Assembly: GCA_017470095.1 (NCBI GenBank)
Contig: JAFUFC010000128.1
Span: 1 to 37,713 of the forward strand
Origin: Clostridia bacterium
GTDB lineage: Bacteria; Bacillota; Clostridia; Christensenellales; Aristaeellaceae
Length of the DNA: 37,713 bases
Direction: 5' to 3'
The position numbers were made by a program, and so were the translations under genes. Shown piece after piece: positions 6,085 to 35,176 of this stretch; within the stretch, counting starts at the first letter, position 1, and each line of letters begins with the position of its first letter. The notes under the pieces are model-generated. The model had not been told where the DNA came from. It worked only from the letters and a program-made list of their open reading frames with translations, and searched no databases.

Positions 6085-7671
6085 ATGGATTTGATCAGAA
6101 CGCTGCTGGTGTACATGATGCTGGCCGTGGGCGCTTCCACTGAAGGCGCGCCCGCCGTAACCCCGCTTCCTGTCACCCCCACTCCGGCCCCATCGCCCAT
6201 CGCGGTGGTGGTTTCCTCCCCCATTCCTGCCGCCACAGCCACGCCGGCCGTCCGTTATACCACGCTGTATGTAGGCGATAAGGGCGAAAACGTGCGCAAA
6301 ATGCAGCAGCGGCTGAAGGATCTGGGCTATTATTCCGGAAAAATCGACGGCCAATATGGCCAGCAGACCCGCCGGGCCGTGGAGGCTTTCCAAACCAATA
6401 ACGGCCTGAAGGTGGATGGCATTGCGGGCCGCGCCACCCTGACGGTGCTCTATGAAGGCAAGGGGCTGGCCACCCCCGGTCCCAACGGTACTGCCCGGCC
6501 AACGGCCACGCCGCCGCTGAATGTAACAGTGCCGGTGTATTATGTGGATCAGAACGGCAGCATCCTGCGTCGGGTGGATATGGTGCTCTATGAGGGCTCC
6601 ACCACTATTTACGCCAATGCCGCCAACGTCAGCGCCGGGTACACCCTCCTGTCGGATAACGCCGCGGTAGTCACCGTGTCCAAGGGTGTGGCAAAGCCGG
6701 ATTCGGTGTACTTCCGTTATCAGGCTGCCCCCACCGCCGCGCCTGCGCCCCAGGAAATTTCCATGCCGGTCATTTATATGACTGATACCGGCGATGTGAT
6801 GCTGCGAGAGAGCGTAACCCTGCCCAGCGGCGCCATCACCCCGGTCACTGTCGGCCACTCTATTGATGAATCGACCTTCCGGCTCATCAGCCCGGACACC
6901 GTGAACGTCACCGTTTCCGTCCAGGGCGCCGCCTCCCCCGCCACCGTAATTTTTACCTACCGGTTCACTGAACCGACCGCCGCGCCGGAATCCACAGCGA
7001 CTCCCGAACCGACCGCCGAGCCCACGGCGACTCCCGAACCCACAGCCGAACCCACAGCGACTCCCGAGCCGACCGCCGAACCCTCGGCAACTCCCGAGCC
7101 GACCGCCGAGCCCACGGCGACTCCCGAGCCCACCGCCGAGCCCACGGCAACTCCCGAGCCCACCGCCGAACCAACGGCAACTCCCGAGCCCACCGCCGAA
7201 CCAACGGCGACTCCCGAGCCCACCGCCGAACCAACGGCGACTCCCGAACCCACCACCGAACCCACGACAACTCCCGAGCCCTCGGCGACTCCCGAGCCCA
7301 CCACCGAACCCACAGCCTCGCCCCAGCCCCTGTCGAAAGGCGGGGATGCGATGCTGCTCAACGGCGTCACCCAGTCCCTATCCTGGTATCAAGATAACAA
7401 ATCCAATGCTTATGTCAGCCTGAAAAAGCTGGCGCAAGCCCTGGGTCTGTCCTATACCGCCAACGCAGAATGCGTGCTGAATGGGCACTATGTGGCCGCC
7501 ATTTACAATGACGACAGCGGCATCATCGCCCTGACGGTGGATGAAAAGAACTACGAAAAGAACGGCGCCCTGCAAAGCGGCGATCTGCTGGTGAACGCCC
7601 ACTTCCTGGAAGCCATCGGCGCTGAAGTCACCATGAGCGATGGAAACCTGTCCATTGAGCTGAGCAAATAA
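6085..7671 (+). CDS. Secreted peptidoglycan-binding protein with Pro/Thr/Glu repeat linker and Cu-amine-oxidase-N-like stalk domain
   Basis: 528 residues; ATG follows AAAGGAG. A short hydrophobic start (about 3-16) suggests export. Order: a Pro/Thr/Ala spacer, a PG_binding_1 domain (about 59-113: GDKGENVRKMQQRLKDLGYY, then DGIAGRATLTVLY), two beta-rich modules starting VPVYYVDQNG and MPVIYMTDTG that look like duplicates of each other, a TATPEPTAEP repeat linker (about 303-412), and a C-terminal domain (about 417-528, starting MLLNGVTQSLSWY) resembling the copper amine oxidase N-terminal (stalk) domain of wall proteins. The protein probably attaches to or spans the cell wall; no catalytic domain is visible. 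It has its own terminator. Similar linker style and PG_binding_1 use recur in the barnase protein at 33279. Confidence 0.85.
   Translation: MDLIRTLLVYMMLAVGASTEGAPAVTPLPVTPTPAPSPIAVVVSSPIPAATATPAVRYTTLYVGDKGENVRKMQQRLKDLGYYSGKIDGQYGQQTRRAVEAFQTNNGLKVDGIAGRATLTVLYEGKGLATPGPNGTARPTATPPLNVTVPVYYVDQNGSILRRVDMVLYEGSTTIYANAANVSAGYTLLSDNAAVVTVSKGVAKPDSVYFRYQAAPTAAPAPQEISMPVIYMTDTGDVMLRESVTLPSGAITPVTVGHSIDESTFRLISPDTVNVTVSVQGAASPATVIFTYRFTEPTAAPESTATPEPTAEPTATPEPTAEPTATPEPTAEPSATPEPTAEPTATPEPTAEPTATPEPTAEPTATPEPTAEPTATPEPTAEPTATPEPTTEPTTTPEPSATPEPTTEPTASPQPLSKGGDAMLLNGVTQSLSWYQDNKSNAYVSLKKLAQALGLSYTANAECVLNGHYVAAIYNDDSGIIALTVDEKNYEKNGALQSGDLLVNAHFLEAIGAEVTMSDGNLSIELSK
6991..7260 (+). repeat. 30-bp minisatellite, nine in-register units encoding TATPEPTAEP
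   Basis: Nine 30-bp units follow with only synonymous or conservative changes, then degenerate partial units to about 7320. The repeat is in frame, so unit gain or loss would change linker length without frameshift. Confidence 0.9.
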
Positions 7672-31465: not shown

Positions 31466-31494
31466 ATCTTAATCCCTTCCGCCTGCCTTGTCAA
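31466..31494 (-). promoter_or_regulatory. cca promoter
   Basis: TTGACA (31494-31489), 17-bp spacer, TAAGAT (31471-31466). Confidence 0.8.
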
Positions 31495-31516
31495 TCCTGG
31501 CTTTTCGTGATAGAAT
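31488..31516 (+). promoter_or_regulatory. Promoter of the YkgJ/methyltransferase/barnase unit
   Basis: TTGTCA (31488-31493), 17-bp spacer, TAGAAT (31511-31516). Its -35 overlaps that of the cca promoter by five bases, so polymerase cannot occupy both at once. Confidence 0.75.
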
Positions 31517-31546
31517 AGAGTGAAGATTTATGCGGAGGAAAAAAGC

Positions 31547-32029
31547 ATGGACGCGCTCAAGGCCGTGATCGCCGCCCGGGAATTATTGGCCCAGGTAACG
31601 CCGTTAAAGCAGGACTGCGGTCGCTACTGCGGCGGTGCCTGCTGCCAAAGCGATGAGGATGGCCAGGGCGGCATGCTGCTGTTTCCGGGCGAGGAAACGC
31701 TTTATAGGGATTTACCGGAAGGCTTTAGCCTAATGCGGGATGACGCCGTGCTGAAAAACGCTTGGCTGCTGCAATGCGAGGGCTTTTGCAATCGAGAGGA
31801 CAGGCCCCTTTCCTGTCGCCTGTTTCCCTTGCTGCCCACCCGGACGGGGTGTAAAATGGACTGGCGTGGCTGGGCGGTGTGCCCTTTGATGGCGCACGGA
31901 AAAACGGGGCTGAACCCTGCCTTCACCGCCGCTGTAAAAGAGGCGGGAAAAATCCTATACAGCTGTGAGGAGCATGCCGCGTTGCTGGATGCCATTCACC
32001 AGTATAATGAGCAATTAAAACAATTTTGA
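31547..32029 (+). CDS. YkgJ-like cysteine-rich (zinc/iron-chelating) protein
   Basis: 160 residues from ATG 31547 (GCGGAGG site); earlier in-frame starts precede the transcription start. Cysteines cluster as in the YkgJ family (PF03692): Cys24, 28, 32 and 33 (CGRYCGGACC), then Cys77, 81, 90 (CEGFC, RPLSCRLFP), Cys102 and Cys112. The family is thought to bind zinc or an Fe-S cluster; its reaction is unknown. It is the first gene of the unit with methyltransferase, barnase, barstar and regulator; the 25-base gap to the next gene has no terminator. Confidence 0.88.
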   Translation: MDALKAVIAARELLAQVTPLKQDCGRYCGGACCQSDEDGQGGMLLFPGEETLYRDLPEGFSLMRDDAVLKNAWLLQCEGFCNREDRPLSCRLFPLLPTRTGCKMDWRGWAVCPLMAHGKTGLNPAFTAAVKEAGKILYSCEEHAALLDAIHQYNEQLKQF

Positions 32030-32054
32030 ACCGCTGACAGTTGGGAGGATGCTT

Positions 32055-33278
32055 ATGGGCTGGGTACAAGTGCCTTGCCGTCAGGAAACGCACATCGGCG
32101 CCGCCGCCGGCGATTTGCTTTTGCAGGATGCGCGAGGCGATTTTTCCGCCTGGAAGGGCCAGGCGCAATGCGTGTATCTGGATCCGCCGTTCATGACCGG
32201 AGAAGAATTTTTCCTGCGGATGCGTGTAGGCGAAAAAGGCTGGGAAACGGGCAAAAATCCTCTGGTTCTGCCCGCGTACAGCGATCAGTTTGAAAGCAAG
32301 GACGTCTATCTTTCCCTGCTTCGCGCCGCGCTGGAAAACGCCAAAATGCTTTTGAACGAAACAGGTTCCCTTTTTTTGCATCTGGACACACGCATGGCTG
32401 CCTACGCCCGGATTTTGTGCGATGAAATTTTCGGCGAAAACAATTTCGTCAACGAGATCATCTGGGCTTACCAGTCCGGCGGCCGCAGCATGAAGCGCTT
32501 TTCCCGAAAGCATGACGTGATTTTGTTCTACCGCAAATCCCGGCGGCAGTATTTTGATATTACCGCCGTTCCCCTGCCCCGCAGTGAAAACCGCAGCAAC
32601 CATATGCGTCGCTGTGTAGACGAAAACGGCCGCAGCTACCGCACCATCCAATCCGGCGGCAAAACCTATACTTATTATGATGATGAACCGGTTTATCCCG
32701 GCGACGTGTGGGCCGATGTGAGCCACTTGCAGCAAAAGGACCCCCAGCGCACCGGCTATGACACCCAAAAACCCATGGCGCTGCTGAGCCGCATCATTCT
32801 TTGCTCCACCCGTCCCGGCGATCTGGTAGCCGACCTGTTCGGCGGCTCCGGCACCACCGCAGCGGCGGCTGCCCATCACGGGCGGCGGTATTTGTCGGCC
32901 GATTTGAGCGCCGCGGCCCTGACTGTGTGTCGCAAACGGCTGCTGAACACCGCTCTGACCCTGACCGCCCCCACCCAAAAGCTGCAAAACGCCCGCATGG
33001 AAGCGGATTTTATTCCCGGCATCGCCTTCCACGATGTGCATTTGGCAGATTATGATCCCGGACCAAACGTCCCCATCCGGGGGCTGGACGCGGTGGACCA
33101 ATGGTCGGTGGGCTTTTACCAGGACGGGGTGTTCCGCTCCCAGTCCAACGCCGCCCGGCGCAGGCAGAGCCCCGCGCTTCCCGATTTGCTGCAATTGCCC
33201 CAGCTTCGGGGGACCCCCGCCATCCTGATCGCTGATATTTACGGCAACCGCAGCGTATGGCTGCAGGAGGAAACATAA
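32055..33278 (+). CDS. Orphan site-specific DNA methyltransferase (beta class, N6-adenine/N4-cytosine)
   Basis: 407 residues from ATG 32055, six bases after GGGAGG; ATG 32049 touches that site. Catalytic motif IV DPPF (43-46) lies N-terminal and the SAM-binding motif I FGGSGTT (262-268) C-terminal, the beta-class order. A target-recognition region lies between (about 140-230). A C-terminal extension of ~100 residues (from about 300; GLDAVDQWSVGFYQDGVF) has no motif I know. DPPF leaves N6-adenine or N4-cytosine open. No restriction endonuclease is adjacent, so it is an orphan methyltransferase. Its stop touches the ATG of the barnase gene, indicating coupling. Confidence 0.92.
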   Translation: MGWVQVPCRQETHIGAAAGDLLLQDARGDFSAWKGQAQCVYLDPPFMTGEEFFLRMRVGEKGWETGKNPLVLPAYSDQFESKDVYLSLLRAALENAKMLLNETGSLFLHLDTRMAAYARILCDEIFGENNFVNEIIWAYQSGGRSMKRFSRKHDVILFYRKSRRQYFDITAVPLPRSENRSNHMRRCVDENGRSYRTIQSGGKTYTYYDDEPVYPGDVWADVSHLQQKDPQRTGYDTQKPMALLSRIILCSTRPGDLVADLFGGSGTTAAAAAHHGRRYLSADLSAAALTVCRKRLLNTALTLTAPTQKLQNARMEADFIPGIAFHDVHLADYDPGPNVPIRGLDAVDQWSVGFYQDGVFRSQSNAARRRQSPALPDLLQLPQLRGTPAILIADIYGNRSVWLQEET

Positions 33279-34100
33279 ATGGATCAACGGCCCAATAAGA
33301 AAAAGTATTCGTCCCTGGCCCGCCTTGTGGCCCTGATTGCAGCGCTGATCGTGATCATAGGCACCATTTTTGTGGTGTTTCAGCCGGGAAAAAACAGCGC
33401 TGATTCAGCTGTCCTCCCCCACGCCTATGCCGCCGCGCCCACGGAAAAACCCTGGAAGGATTTGAAAAAGGGGTCCTCCGGCGAAGCCGTTAAGCGCGCC
33501 CAATGCGCGCTGTCAGCGCTGGGTTTCTATGAAGGGAAACAGGACGGCAATTTCAGCAAGGCTTTTGAGGAAGCGGTGCTGGCCTTCCAGCAGGATTGGG
33601 ATTTGGAAGCAACCGGCGTGATCGATCAAGACACCTACGAATTGATCACCGCCGATCTGCCGGAAAATCCGCCCACGCCCGCTCCCGCCGTCACGCCTCC
33701 GGCCACAGCACCGCCTGCCCAGGCAGCAGCCACGGAAGCGCCCTCTGAGCAGCCCTTTGTGGTTCAAGGGGCTTCCTATTCCGACAAAGAACACGTAGCG
33801 GCTTACTTGAAAGCCTACGGCCAACTGCCGCCCAACTACATCACCAAGCAGGAGGCCCAAAGCCTGGGCTGGGTGGCCAGCTACGGCAATTTGTGGGAGG
33901 TAGCCCCGGGCAAGAGCATCGGCGGCGACCGGTTCGGCAATTACGAGGGCCAGCTGCCCGTCAAGTATGGCCGGCGATACTTTGAATGCGATATCGATTT
34001 TGACGGCAGCTTTCGCAACGCCAAGCGCATCATTTTCAGCAACGATGGCCTGATCTTCTACACCGAAGATCATTATAATACCTTTGAGGAGATCAAATAA
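33279..34100 (+). CDS. Membrane-anchored, peptidoglycan-binding barnase (guanyl-specific RNase)
   Basis: 273 residues; ATG directly follows the methyltransferase stop, with AGGAGG in that gene's last codons. Order: basic tail, membrane segment (about 13-33, possibly a signal anchor), PG_binding_1 domain (about 60-125: LKKGSSGEAVKRAQCALSALG), Pro/Ala linker (128-158), and a barnase domain (about 165-273). The catalytic residues of Bacillus barnase all align without a gap at a constant offset of 163: Lys27 = Lys190, Glu73 = Glu236, Arg83 = Arg246, Arg87 = Arg250, His102 = His265. Barnase cleaves RNA after guanine. The RNase would sit outside the cell, tied to the wall. Barstar follows at once. 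Confidence 0.95.
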   Translation: MDQRPNKKKYSSLARLVALIAALIVIIGTIFVVFQPGKNSADSAVLPHAYAAAPTEKPWKDLKKGSSGEAVKRAQCALSALGFYEGKQDGNFSKAFEEAVLAFQQDWDLEATGVIDQDTYELITADLPENPPTPAPAVTPPATAPPAQAAATEAPSEQPFVVQGASYSDKEHVAAYLKAYGQLPPNYITKQEAQSLGWVASYGNLWEVAPGKSIGGDRFGNYEGQLPVKYGRRYFECDIDFDGSFRNAKRIIFSNDGLIFYTEDHYNTFEEIK

Positions 34101-34388
34101 ATGAACCGCGTACAGCTTTCCGCCCGCTCCTGGCGCTCCGCCCAGGACGTCCATGAAGCCCTGGCAAAGGGCCTAACCTTTCCCGGCTATTACGGCCGCA
34201 ATCTGGACGCGCTGCACGATTGCCTGACCGAATTAGGCGACACGCAATTGGTTATCGAGGACTGCGCCGCCGCGTCCCACAACATCGAAACCTGGTCCGG
34301 GTTCCTGGCTGTGTTTTTCGATTCCGCCGCCGAGAATCCCCGGCTGCAAATCCGCCTGCTGCCCGGCAACGGAGACTATGGAGATTAA
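34101..34388 (+). CDS. Barstar-family RNase inhibitor (immunity protein)
   Basis: 95 residues; ATG follows the barnase stop without a gap (TAAATG), with GAGGAG in the barnase 3' end. The barstar helix FPGYYGRNLDALHDCL (27-42) is clear: Tyr30, Asp36 and Asp40 match barstar Tyr29, Asp35 and Asp39, which plug the barnase active site; Asp74 aligns with Glu76. Trp38 of barstar is His39 here. No signal peptide, so it acts in the cytosol, protecting the cell until the RNase is exported. Coupled translation would keep inhibitor at or above toxin level. Confidence 0.95.
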   Translation: MNRVQLSARSWRSAQDVHEALAKGLTFPGYYGRNLDALHDCLTELGDTQLVIEDCAAASHNIETWSGFLAVFFDSAAENPRLQIRLLPGNGDYGD

Positions 34389-34409
34389 AATCAGGAGGAA
34401 TAAAACCTT

Positions 34410-35135
34410 ATGAGCAGATTGGGTGATCTGATTCGCCTGGAGCGCACTCGTCAGGGCCTGACCCACAAGCAGGTGGCCCGGAAGTGCGGCGTCAGCGATA
34501 AATACTTGATGGAAGTGGAAGCGGGCACCCGCATCATTGCCGACGACCAGGCCCGCCGCATCTTGAAAACCATGGGCATGACCCAGCAGACAGAAGCGGA
34601 TTTTACGCTGGACGATATTGCCGCCACGGTGGACCTGCAATCCGCCGTGCCCCAATTGACCCGGGCTGTGGAGCCTAAAAAAGCCGCCAAGCCCATCCAC
34701 GAAGAAAAGGATGGCGATCCCGGCGTGGCCGGCTCCATCTGGTTGGACGCCCTGAGCGGCGTACTTAAGCACGTGCCGGTGTACAACGCCGTCATGAAGG
34801 AAGTGGGCCACCGGCTGTTGCCCATCACCAACGGCAAAATCGAAGGCGCGTCTCCCGACAAAGTATACTATTTTATGGCGCCGGATAACCATTTGCGGGG
34901 CTTCCGCATCCAGCGAGGCGATCTACTGCTGGTAGTGCCCGCCCAGGCCGTGGTGGACGGGGCCATCATGCTGCTGCAAACGCCCCAGGGACGGGTGCTG
35001 CGCAAGATGAAGCGAGTGAACGATTATCAGGCCATGCTGCAAAAATATGACGAGTCCTTTGAAAGCGAAATCAAGAATTACAACGAAATCACCGTGGTGG
35101 GCCGATGTGTGCGGCTGGAAGCGGATTTAACGTAA
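34410..35135 (+). CDS. XRE-family regulator with degenerate LexA/S24-like C-terminal domain
   Basis: 241 residues; AGGAGG 11 bases before the ATG. An HTH_3 domain (about 4-58: LGDLIRLERTRQGLTHKQVARKCGVSDKYL region) is followed by a linker and a domain (about 145-240) resembling the S24/LexA peptidase fold: YFMAPDNHLRGFRIQRGDLLLVVPAQ, VLRKMKRV, and the closing ITVVGRCVRLE. The nucleophile motif GDSM reads PDNHL, so the serine is missing and self-cleavage is unlikely; the lysine region is kept. It probably binds DNA near this unit or elsewhere, sensing a ligand or partner instead of cleavage. Last gene of the unit. Confidence 0.85.
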   Translation: MSRLGDLIRLERTRQGLTHKQVARKCGVSDKYLMEVEAGTRIIADDQARRILKTMGMTQQTEADFTLDDIAATVDLQSAVPQLTRAVEPKKAAKPIHEEKDGDPGVAGSIWLDALSGVLKHVPVYNAVMKEVGHRLLPITNGKIEGASPDKVYYFMAPDNHLRGFRIQRGDLLLVVPAQAVVDGAIMLLQTPQGRVLRKMKRVNDYQAMLQKYDESFESEIKNYNEITVVGRCVRLEADLT

Positions 35136-35142
35136 CAAAAAC

Positions 35143-35176
35143 GGAGGGAACCCATGAGGGTTCCCTCCTTATTTTT
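35143..35176. terminator. Terminator after the regulator, overlapping the AAG gene end
   Basis: GGAGGGAACCC (35143-35153), ATGA loop, GGGTTCCCTCC (35158-35168), then TTATTTTT. Plus-strand terminator; the A-run before it makes it usable for the minus strand too. Confidence 0.9.

What the first reader, a model, noticed from the sequence alone, without database searches (positions are those of the whole stretch)
33279..34388. Wall-anchored barnase fused to a peptidoglycan-binding domain, with its own barstar
The sequence shows a membrane segment, a PG_binding_1 domain, a Pro/Ala linker and a barnase domain whose Lys27, Glu73, Arg83, Arg87 and His102 equivalents are all kept at one constant offset. 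A barstar with the key aspartates follows without a gap. Classic barnase is a free secreted enzyme; tying it to the cell wall suggests a contact-dependent or surface RNase, for competition or RNA scavenging. This layout is unfamiliar to me.
Basis: partly seen in the sequence, partly recalled or inferred. Interest (0 to 1): 0.75.

Follow-up and report, generated by a model that had tools for sequence, protein, structure and literature searches.

The report
Barnase RNase carrying a cell-wall domain
A genus of uncultured rumen and gut bacteria makes a barnase-type RNA-cutting enzyme joined to a predicted cell-wall-binding domain, with its inhibitor gene right behind it, probably to keep RNA breakdown at the cell surface rather than to poison neighbours.

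Summary
ORF 33279-34100 joins a hydrophobic N-terminus, one PG_binding_1 domain, a Pro/Ala linker and a barnase domain (63 of 102 residues identical to barnase, all five named catalytic residues kept). Barstar starts at the next base. The fusion is no one-off: 28 of 29 genomes of the genus have one barnase each, and 27 of those 28 carry PG_binding_1. It was in none of the other 250 of 277 distinct barnase ORFs sampled from family, order, class and phylum. Many of those carry other predicted retention features (lipobox, N-terminal anchor, SH3_3). The window's family is also rich in PG_binding_1 domains (40 in this genome). So the wall domain looks like one lineage's version of a wider habit of keeping barnase at the envelope. 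A contact-dependent weapon is not supported: the C-terminal domain is always barnase, no delivery or pre-toxin domain was found, and barstar contact residues are nearly fixed. An envelope-retained RNase for extracellular RNA breakdown, with barstar as cytoplasmic safety, fits best. RNase activity, wall binding and function are untested, and this genome lacks the 5'-nucleotidase family that 27 of 29 genus genomes have. The hydrophobic segment may be a cleavable signal peptide. New variant of a known kind.

The parts
33279..34100 (+). PG_binding_1-barnase fusion gene, 273 aa (stop included in coordinates)
   Evidence: RBS-like AGGAGG upstream
33318..33386 (+). hydrophobic N-terminal stretch, aa 14-36 (signal peptide or signal anchor)
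   Evidence: homologous stretch in the genus alignment A1
33423..33431 (+). AYA, aa 49-51, candidate signal-peptidase site; an [AV]xA lies within 22 residues before the PG domain in 26 of 27 orthologues
33477..33644 (+). PG_binding_1 domain, aa 67-122
   Evidence: same place found
33654..33764 (+). Pro/Ala-rich linker, aa 126-162, fast evolving
33792..34094 (+). barnase domain (PF00545), aa 172-272, K190 E236 R246 R250 H265
34101..34388 (+). barstar gene, 95 aa, no gap to the barnase stop; the only PF01337 match in this genome
32049..33278 (+). N6_N4_Mtase DNA methyltransferase gene; stop abuts the barnase start; upstream of the fusion in 26 of 27 loci
34410..35135 (+). HTH + S24-like regulator gene, 21 nt after barstar, likely the last gene of the transcription unit
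31520..32029 (+). cysteine-rich ORF without a Pfam match, conserved first gene of the cluster
35143..35168 (+). terminator-like hairpin (11 pairs) after the last gene; consensus scan only

Best explanation
An exported, catalytically competent barnase-type RNase kept at the cell envelope. The N-terminus sends it through Sec and is either cleaved at the AxA site or stays as a membrane anchor. The PG_binding_1 domain then holds it in the wall, and the Pro/Ala linker lets the barnase domain reach RNA outside the membrane. Barstar, made from the adjoining start codon, stays in the cytoplasm and blocks any enzyme that has not been exported. The likely use is breaking down extracellular RNA close to the cell for phosphate or nucleosides. 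SHOWN (sequence): domains, catalytic residues, adjacency, conservation. INFERRED: export, wall binding, RNase activity, barstar binding, scavenging.
For: All five named catalytic residues kept in the window. Across 27 orthologues E73, R87 and H102 are kept in 27, K27 in 26, R83 in 23. The barnase domain is the most constrained part (median dN/dS 0.185, against PG 0.316, linker 0.591, N-terminus 0.684). Barstar within a few nt downstream in 27 of 27, with D35 and D39 kept in 27 of 27. N-terminal hydrophobic stretch in the genus alignment and [AV]xA before the PG domain in 26 of 27. PG_binding_1 is abundant in the lineage: 40 matches in this genome, 25-57 in 16 other family genomes against 10-15 in 4 genomes of other families of the order. 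Other sampled barnases carry other predicted retention features. 5_nucleotid_C proteins occur in 27 of 29 genus genomes. Precedent: B. subtilis YhcR, a sortase-anchored wall nuclease that helps reclaim eDNA phosphate (PMC11458576, abstract and passages).
Against: This genome has no 5_nucleotid_C match (92% complete), so the downstream step of scavenging is not seen here. R83 is Ala in 4 of 27 orthologues. One genus member (L003) has the barnase without the PG domain. PG_binding_1 is a Pfam prediction, and its binding of peptidoglycan was not tested. The gene sits between a methyltransferase and a regulator, not among uptake or phosphate genes. By the looser rule 90 of 277 sampled barnases look like ordinary cleavable secreted proteins.
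Confidence: 0.5

Rival explanations
1. Contact-dependent or polymorphic toxin: the wall-displayed barnase is passed to neighbouring cells, and barstar is the immunity protein.
For: Barnase domains are used as tips of polymorphic toxins with barstar immunity, and PGB and SH3 domains occur in such toxins (PMC3482391, passages). Toxin-then-immunity gene order. In the sample L244 is such a protein, with a Pre-toxin TG domain.
Against: No pre-toxin or delivery domain in the window protein or in 27 orthologues at E 0.001. The C-terminal domain is barnase in 28 of 28 genus loci, single copy per genome. Barstar contact residues are nearly fixed (D35 27, D39 27, E80 26, Y29 25, H38 25, E76-to-Asp 25 of 27), so sister species would probably be immune to each other (inference). 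No match in phage records and none confirmed in viral contigs.
Confidence: 0.1
2. Plain secreted barnase. The PG domain only slows its passage through the wall or is a leftover; the enzyme ends up free in the medium.
For: Candidate signal-peptidase site before the PG domain in 26 of 27. The PG domain is less conserved than barnase. One relative has lost it or lacks it (L003).
Against: PG domain present in 27 of 28 genus barnases and under purifying selection (median dN/dS 0.316).
Confidence: 0.2
3. Guard against foreign RNA or mobile elements at the surface, or part of a small defence-like operon with the methyltransferase and the HTH-S24 regulator.
For: Tight gene spacing with an N6_N4 methyltransferase in 26 of 27 loci, and an HTH-S24 gene nearby in 19 of 27. 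No restriction enzyme was recognised among the neighbours scanned.
Against: PADLOC has no match for the barnase or barstar. The HTH-S24 gene was not found within roughly 4.7 kb downstream in L033, L038, L039, L040 and L041. The genes look like a vertically kept cluster, with moderate distance correlation (Spearman 0.40 methyltransferase against barnase domain).
Confidence: 0.1
4. Intracellular toxin-antitoxin pair (growth control or addiction).
For: Toxin and antidote genes overlap functionally and abut.
Against: Export-type hydrophobic N-terminus and a wall domain. In 14 of 17 genomes whose barnase lacks a neighbouring barstar, a barstar lies elsewhere, so tight linkage is not required.
Confidence: 0.04

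Closest known systems
Barnase / binase (PF00545) with barstar (PF01337), Bacillus
   Same: Catalytic domain 61% identical without gaps, the five named catalytic residues kept; cytoplasmic inhibitor with D35 and D39 kept.
   Different: Bacillus barnase is a free 110-aa secreted enzyme (PMC8625414, passages). Here a PG_binding_1 domain and linker precede it; R59 is Tyr and barstar W38 is His.
Wall-anchored secreted nucleases such as B. subtilis YhcR
   Same: Works like: a Sec-exported nuclease held at the wall (PMC11458576, passages).
   Different: YhcR is sortase-anchored and Ca2+-dependent, with DNA substrate in that paper; here a non-covalent PG_binding_1 domain and a metal-independent barnase fold (recalled). 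No homology claimed.
Barnase-tipped polymorphic toxins (Zhang et al. 2012)
   Same: Barnase at the C-terminus followed by barstar; PGB and SH3 modules are listed among toxin architectures (PMC3482391, passages).
   Different: No pre-toxin domain, no repeats, no swapping of the tip in 28 of 28 genus loci.
Lipoprotein and anchor-type barnases of other Clostridia and Negativicutes
   Same: Same barnase domain, usually with barstar next door (216 of 277), predicted retention at the envelope.
   Different: Retention by lipobox, N-terminal anchor or SH3_3 instead of PG_binding_1.

Membership tests
Barnase family (PF00545) | Profile match over the whole domain | tested here: met
   67.8 bits against a cut-off of 24, profile positions 3-97 of 98
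Barnase family (PF00545) | Catalytic residues K27, E73, R83, R87, H102 | tested here: met
   All five in the window; 22 of 27 orthologues have all five, exceptions K27R in 1 and R83A in 4
Barnase family (PF00545) | RNase activity | not testable with these tools
   Needs an enzyme assay
Barstar family (PF01337) | Profile match and D35/D39 | tested here: met
   58.8 bits against a cut-off of 23.4; D35 and D39 in 27 of 27
Barstar family (PF01337) | Inhibits its partner | not testable with these tools
   Complex prediction not available; needs a binding assay
Peptidoglycan-bound surface protein | PG_binding_1 domain | tested here: met
   57 bits against a cut-off of 23; 27 of 27 orthologues
Peptidoglycan-bound surface protein | Actual binding to peptidoglycan | not testable with these tools
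   Needs a sacculus pull-down
Sec-exported protein | Hydrophobic N-terminus with SPase I site | tested here: inconclusive
   Hydrophobic aa 14-36 and AYA at 49-51, but the gap is longer than usual (recalled); [AV]xA in 26 of 27; no signal-peptide predictor was available
Polymorphic / contact-dependent toxin | Constant N-terminus with swapped C-terminal toxin domains | tested here: not met
   C-terminal domain is barnase in 28 of 28 genus loci
Polymorphic / contact-dependent toxin | Pre-toxin, repeat or delivery domain | tested here: not met
   Three Pfam families only (PG_binding_1, Ribonuclease, PG_binding_2) across 27 members at E 0.001
Known anti-phage defence system | PADLOC model match | tested here: not met
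   No match for barnase or barstar at E 0.01; the neighbour methyltransferase matches MTase models

The most novel reading that the evidence does not exclude
Barnase in gut Clostridia is, as a rule, an envelope enzyme. The catalytic core stays while the retention device is exchanged (lipobox, N-terminal anchor, SH3_3, polybasic tail, PG_binding_1), and the window's genus has fixed the peptidoglycan-bound form. That would define a class of surface RNases whose selected trait is local RNA degradation, and would recast free Bacillus barnase as one variant.
Probability: 0.4. Interest if true: 0.55.

Novelty: new variant of a known kind. Interest (0 to 1): 0.4.

Why it matters
The natural role of barnase, one of the most studied model enzymes, is not settled as far as I know (recalled). 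A genus in which the enzyme is kept in single copy and joined to a wall domain, and relatives with other predicted retention features, suggest that where the enzyme acts is under selection. That makes the role testable: release the enzyme from the wall and see what is lost. It also gives natural barnase-barstar pairs with altered contacts (R59 to Tyr, barstar W38 to His), useful for studying how this interface evolves.

Tried and rejected
Contact-dependent toxin: rejected as the leading reading, because the C-terminus is not polymorphic and no toxin-delivery domain was found.

Phage, plasmid or virus cargo: no match in 50,697 phage records. In viral contigs 59 stretches matched the search patterns and none was confirmed. 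In plasmid records there were 6 matches, none covering 80% of the query; 5 cover the barnase part and one the PG part of an S41 peptidase.

Single gain of the PG domain on the barnase tree: the 27 PG members form an exclusive group, but with support 0.034, so the tree says nothing, and L003 falls outside that group. Synteny is the better evidence for orthology.

A claim that most barnases are tethered: weakened after counting. The loose rules give 165 of 255 exported-looking ORFs with a retention feature (88 lipobox, 50 anchor-like, 27 PG; 22 MuF-like or truncated ORFs left out); with a stricter lipobox pattern (52 of 88) this is 129 of 255. An earlier rule set on 161 ORFs gave different class counts. 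The sample leans towards the window's relatives: 8 places and 2 weak places were not fetched, and the list was cut.

Barstar residue counts were off by one in numbering and were redone.

Nucleotide scavenging support was sought through 5_nucleotid_C: absent in the own genome, present in 27 of 29 genus genomes.

Full report
Observation. The window holds a 273-aa ORF at 33279-34100 with PG_binding_1 (aa 67-122) and Ribonuclease (aa 172-272), and a 95-aa barstar at 34101-34388. The barnase domain is 63 of 102 residues identical to the PDB barnase sequence without a gap, and K27, E73, R83, R87 and H102 are all present at one offset. The methyltransferase stop, the barnase start, the barnase stop and the barstar start abut. 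The genome has one PF00545 and one PF01337 match.

Operon. Five same-strand genes run from 31520 to 35135 with gaps of 19, 0, 0 and 21 nt. A promoter-like match lies at 31488-31516 and an 11-pair terminator-like hairpin at 35143-35168, but such matches are not much above shuffled expectation (5 against 2.0, and 9 against 5.7). The first ORF has no Pfam match.

Distribution. Of 29 genus genomes including the window's, 28 have one barnase match each; the exception, G009, is 80% complete. 27 of the 28 carry PG_binding_1; L003 does not. The methyltransferase was found upstream in 26 of 27 PG loci, and the 27th locus ends just upstream of the gene. PF00545 is frequent in the family (142 of 200 genomes) and rarer in draws from the order (66 of 396), class (57 of 391) and phylum (19 of 398). 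Among 277 distinct barnase ORFs collected from these searches, only the 27 genus members have the PG domain by a local profile. The hosts named are uncultured rumen and gut Clostridia MAGs.

What replaces the PG domain elsewhere. Simple rules on the 277 ORFs give 88 lipobox, 90 with an AxA-type site, 50 anchor-like, 27 PG_binding_1, 10 MuF-like and 12 without a usable N-terminus. Only 52 of the 88 pass a stricter lipobox pattern. SH3_3 is above the Pfam cut-off in L283 and below it in L009. These are rules of thumb, not predictor output, and the sample leans to relatives of the window.

Why PG_binding_1. The domain is a common module of this family: 40 matches in the own genome, 25-57 in 16 other family genomes, and 10-15 in 4 genomes from other families of the order. 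The genome that lacks it in its barnase (G017) still has 42 matches. So the fusion probably reuses a local surface module (inference).

Selection. Mean pairwise identity across 27 orthologues is 0.748 for barnase, 0.612 for the PG domain, 0.364 for the linker and 0.361 for the N-terminus; median dN/dS is 0.185, 0.316, 0.591 and 0.684 (pairs with 0.1<dS<1.5). E73, R87 and H102 are kept in 27 of 27, K27 in 26 and R83 in 23. The four R83-to-Ala members group together with support 0.997 and may be less active (inference).

Barstar. D35 and D39 are kept in 27 of 27, Y29 in 25, T42 in 24, E80 in 26; E76 is Asp in 25; W38 is His in 25 and Tyr in 2 (canonical numbering recalled). Barnase R59 is Tyr in 27 of 27. 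In the 25 commonest pair types over the sample, barnase R59 goes with barstar W38 in 12 of 15 cases, and Tyr at 59 goes with His or Tyr at 38 in 85 of 101. This hints at co-variation, without control for relatedness. Barstar is within 400 nt downstream in 216 of 277 ORFs and in 27 of 27 PG members. In 17 other genomes checked because a barnase lacked an adjacent barstar, 14 have one somewhere in the genome.

Export. [AV]xA precedes the PG domain in 26 of 27. In the window it lies about 13 residues after the hydrophobic stretch, longer than usual (recalled). Whether the N-terminus is cleaved stays open.

Mechanism. Best reading: a surface RNase with cytoplasmic barstar as safety, used for local RNA breakdown (confidence 0.5). 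The scavenging part rests on analogy with YhcR (PMC11458576, abstract and passages) and on 5_nucleotid_C proteins in 27 of 29 genus genomes; the own genome is one of the two without it, which counts against.

Known literature. Zhang et al. 2012 (PMC3482391; passages) describe barnase toxins with barstar immunity, PGB and SH3 modules in toxins, and 'simple barnase-barstar gene pairs'. In the listings I saw no paper on a PG_binding_1-barnase fusion; the library holds only open-licence PMC papers and I opened passages of three papers, so absence from print is not shown.

Noticed in passing
L088, L089, L136, L140, L252, L257, L262, L276 and others (24 ORFs): Tandem double-barnase proteins in the window's family: each has exactly one domain with all five catalytic residues (first in 18, second in 6), while the other has lost His102, in one case being only a partial match. 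A recurrent live/dead pair, perhaps an RNA-binding or barstar-holding pseudoenzyme.
   Followed up: partly
L054, L273, L285, L286, L314, L333 and others (31 ORFs): Barnases with a lysine-rich stretch and a Thr/Pro linker after the N-terminus; 29 of 31 have no barstar within 400 nt. The tail might bind the wall or RNA by charge.
   Followed up: partly
L129, L143, L147: In one sister genus the barnase gene is directly followed by a lipoprotein gene with a PG_binding_1 array, as if the fusion were split over two genes.
   Followed up: partly
L102, L103, L123: Barnase after an alpha/beta hydrolase domain (L102, Pfam Abhydrolase_5 E 3e-45; L103 by eye only) and after a TPM domain (L123).
   Followed up: partly
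L244:271-1788: Barnase tip with a Pre-toxin TG domain, a polymorphic-toxin layout, in a phylum-level relative.
   Followed up: no
L064, L155, L165, L168 and others: Barnase domains after short cysteine-rich, phage-head-like (MuF-like) N-termini, mostly with barstar (8 of 10 by one rule; 17 ORFs by another rule).
   Followed up: no
window 6085-7671: Another PG_binding_1 protein (528 aa) with a long Pro/Thr/Glu repeat region and a C-terminal domain I did not identify.
   Followed up: no
L031:6029-7048: In some relatives an M28-like peptidase gene (by eye) sits between barstar and the HTH-S24 gene; it is absent in the window.
   Followed up: no
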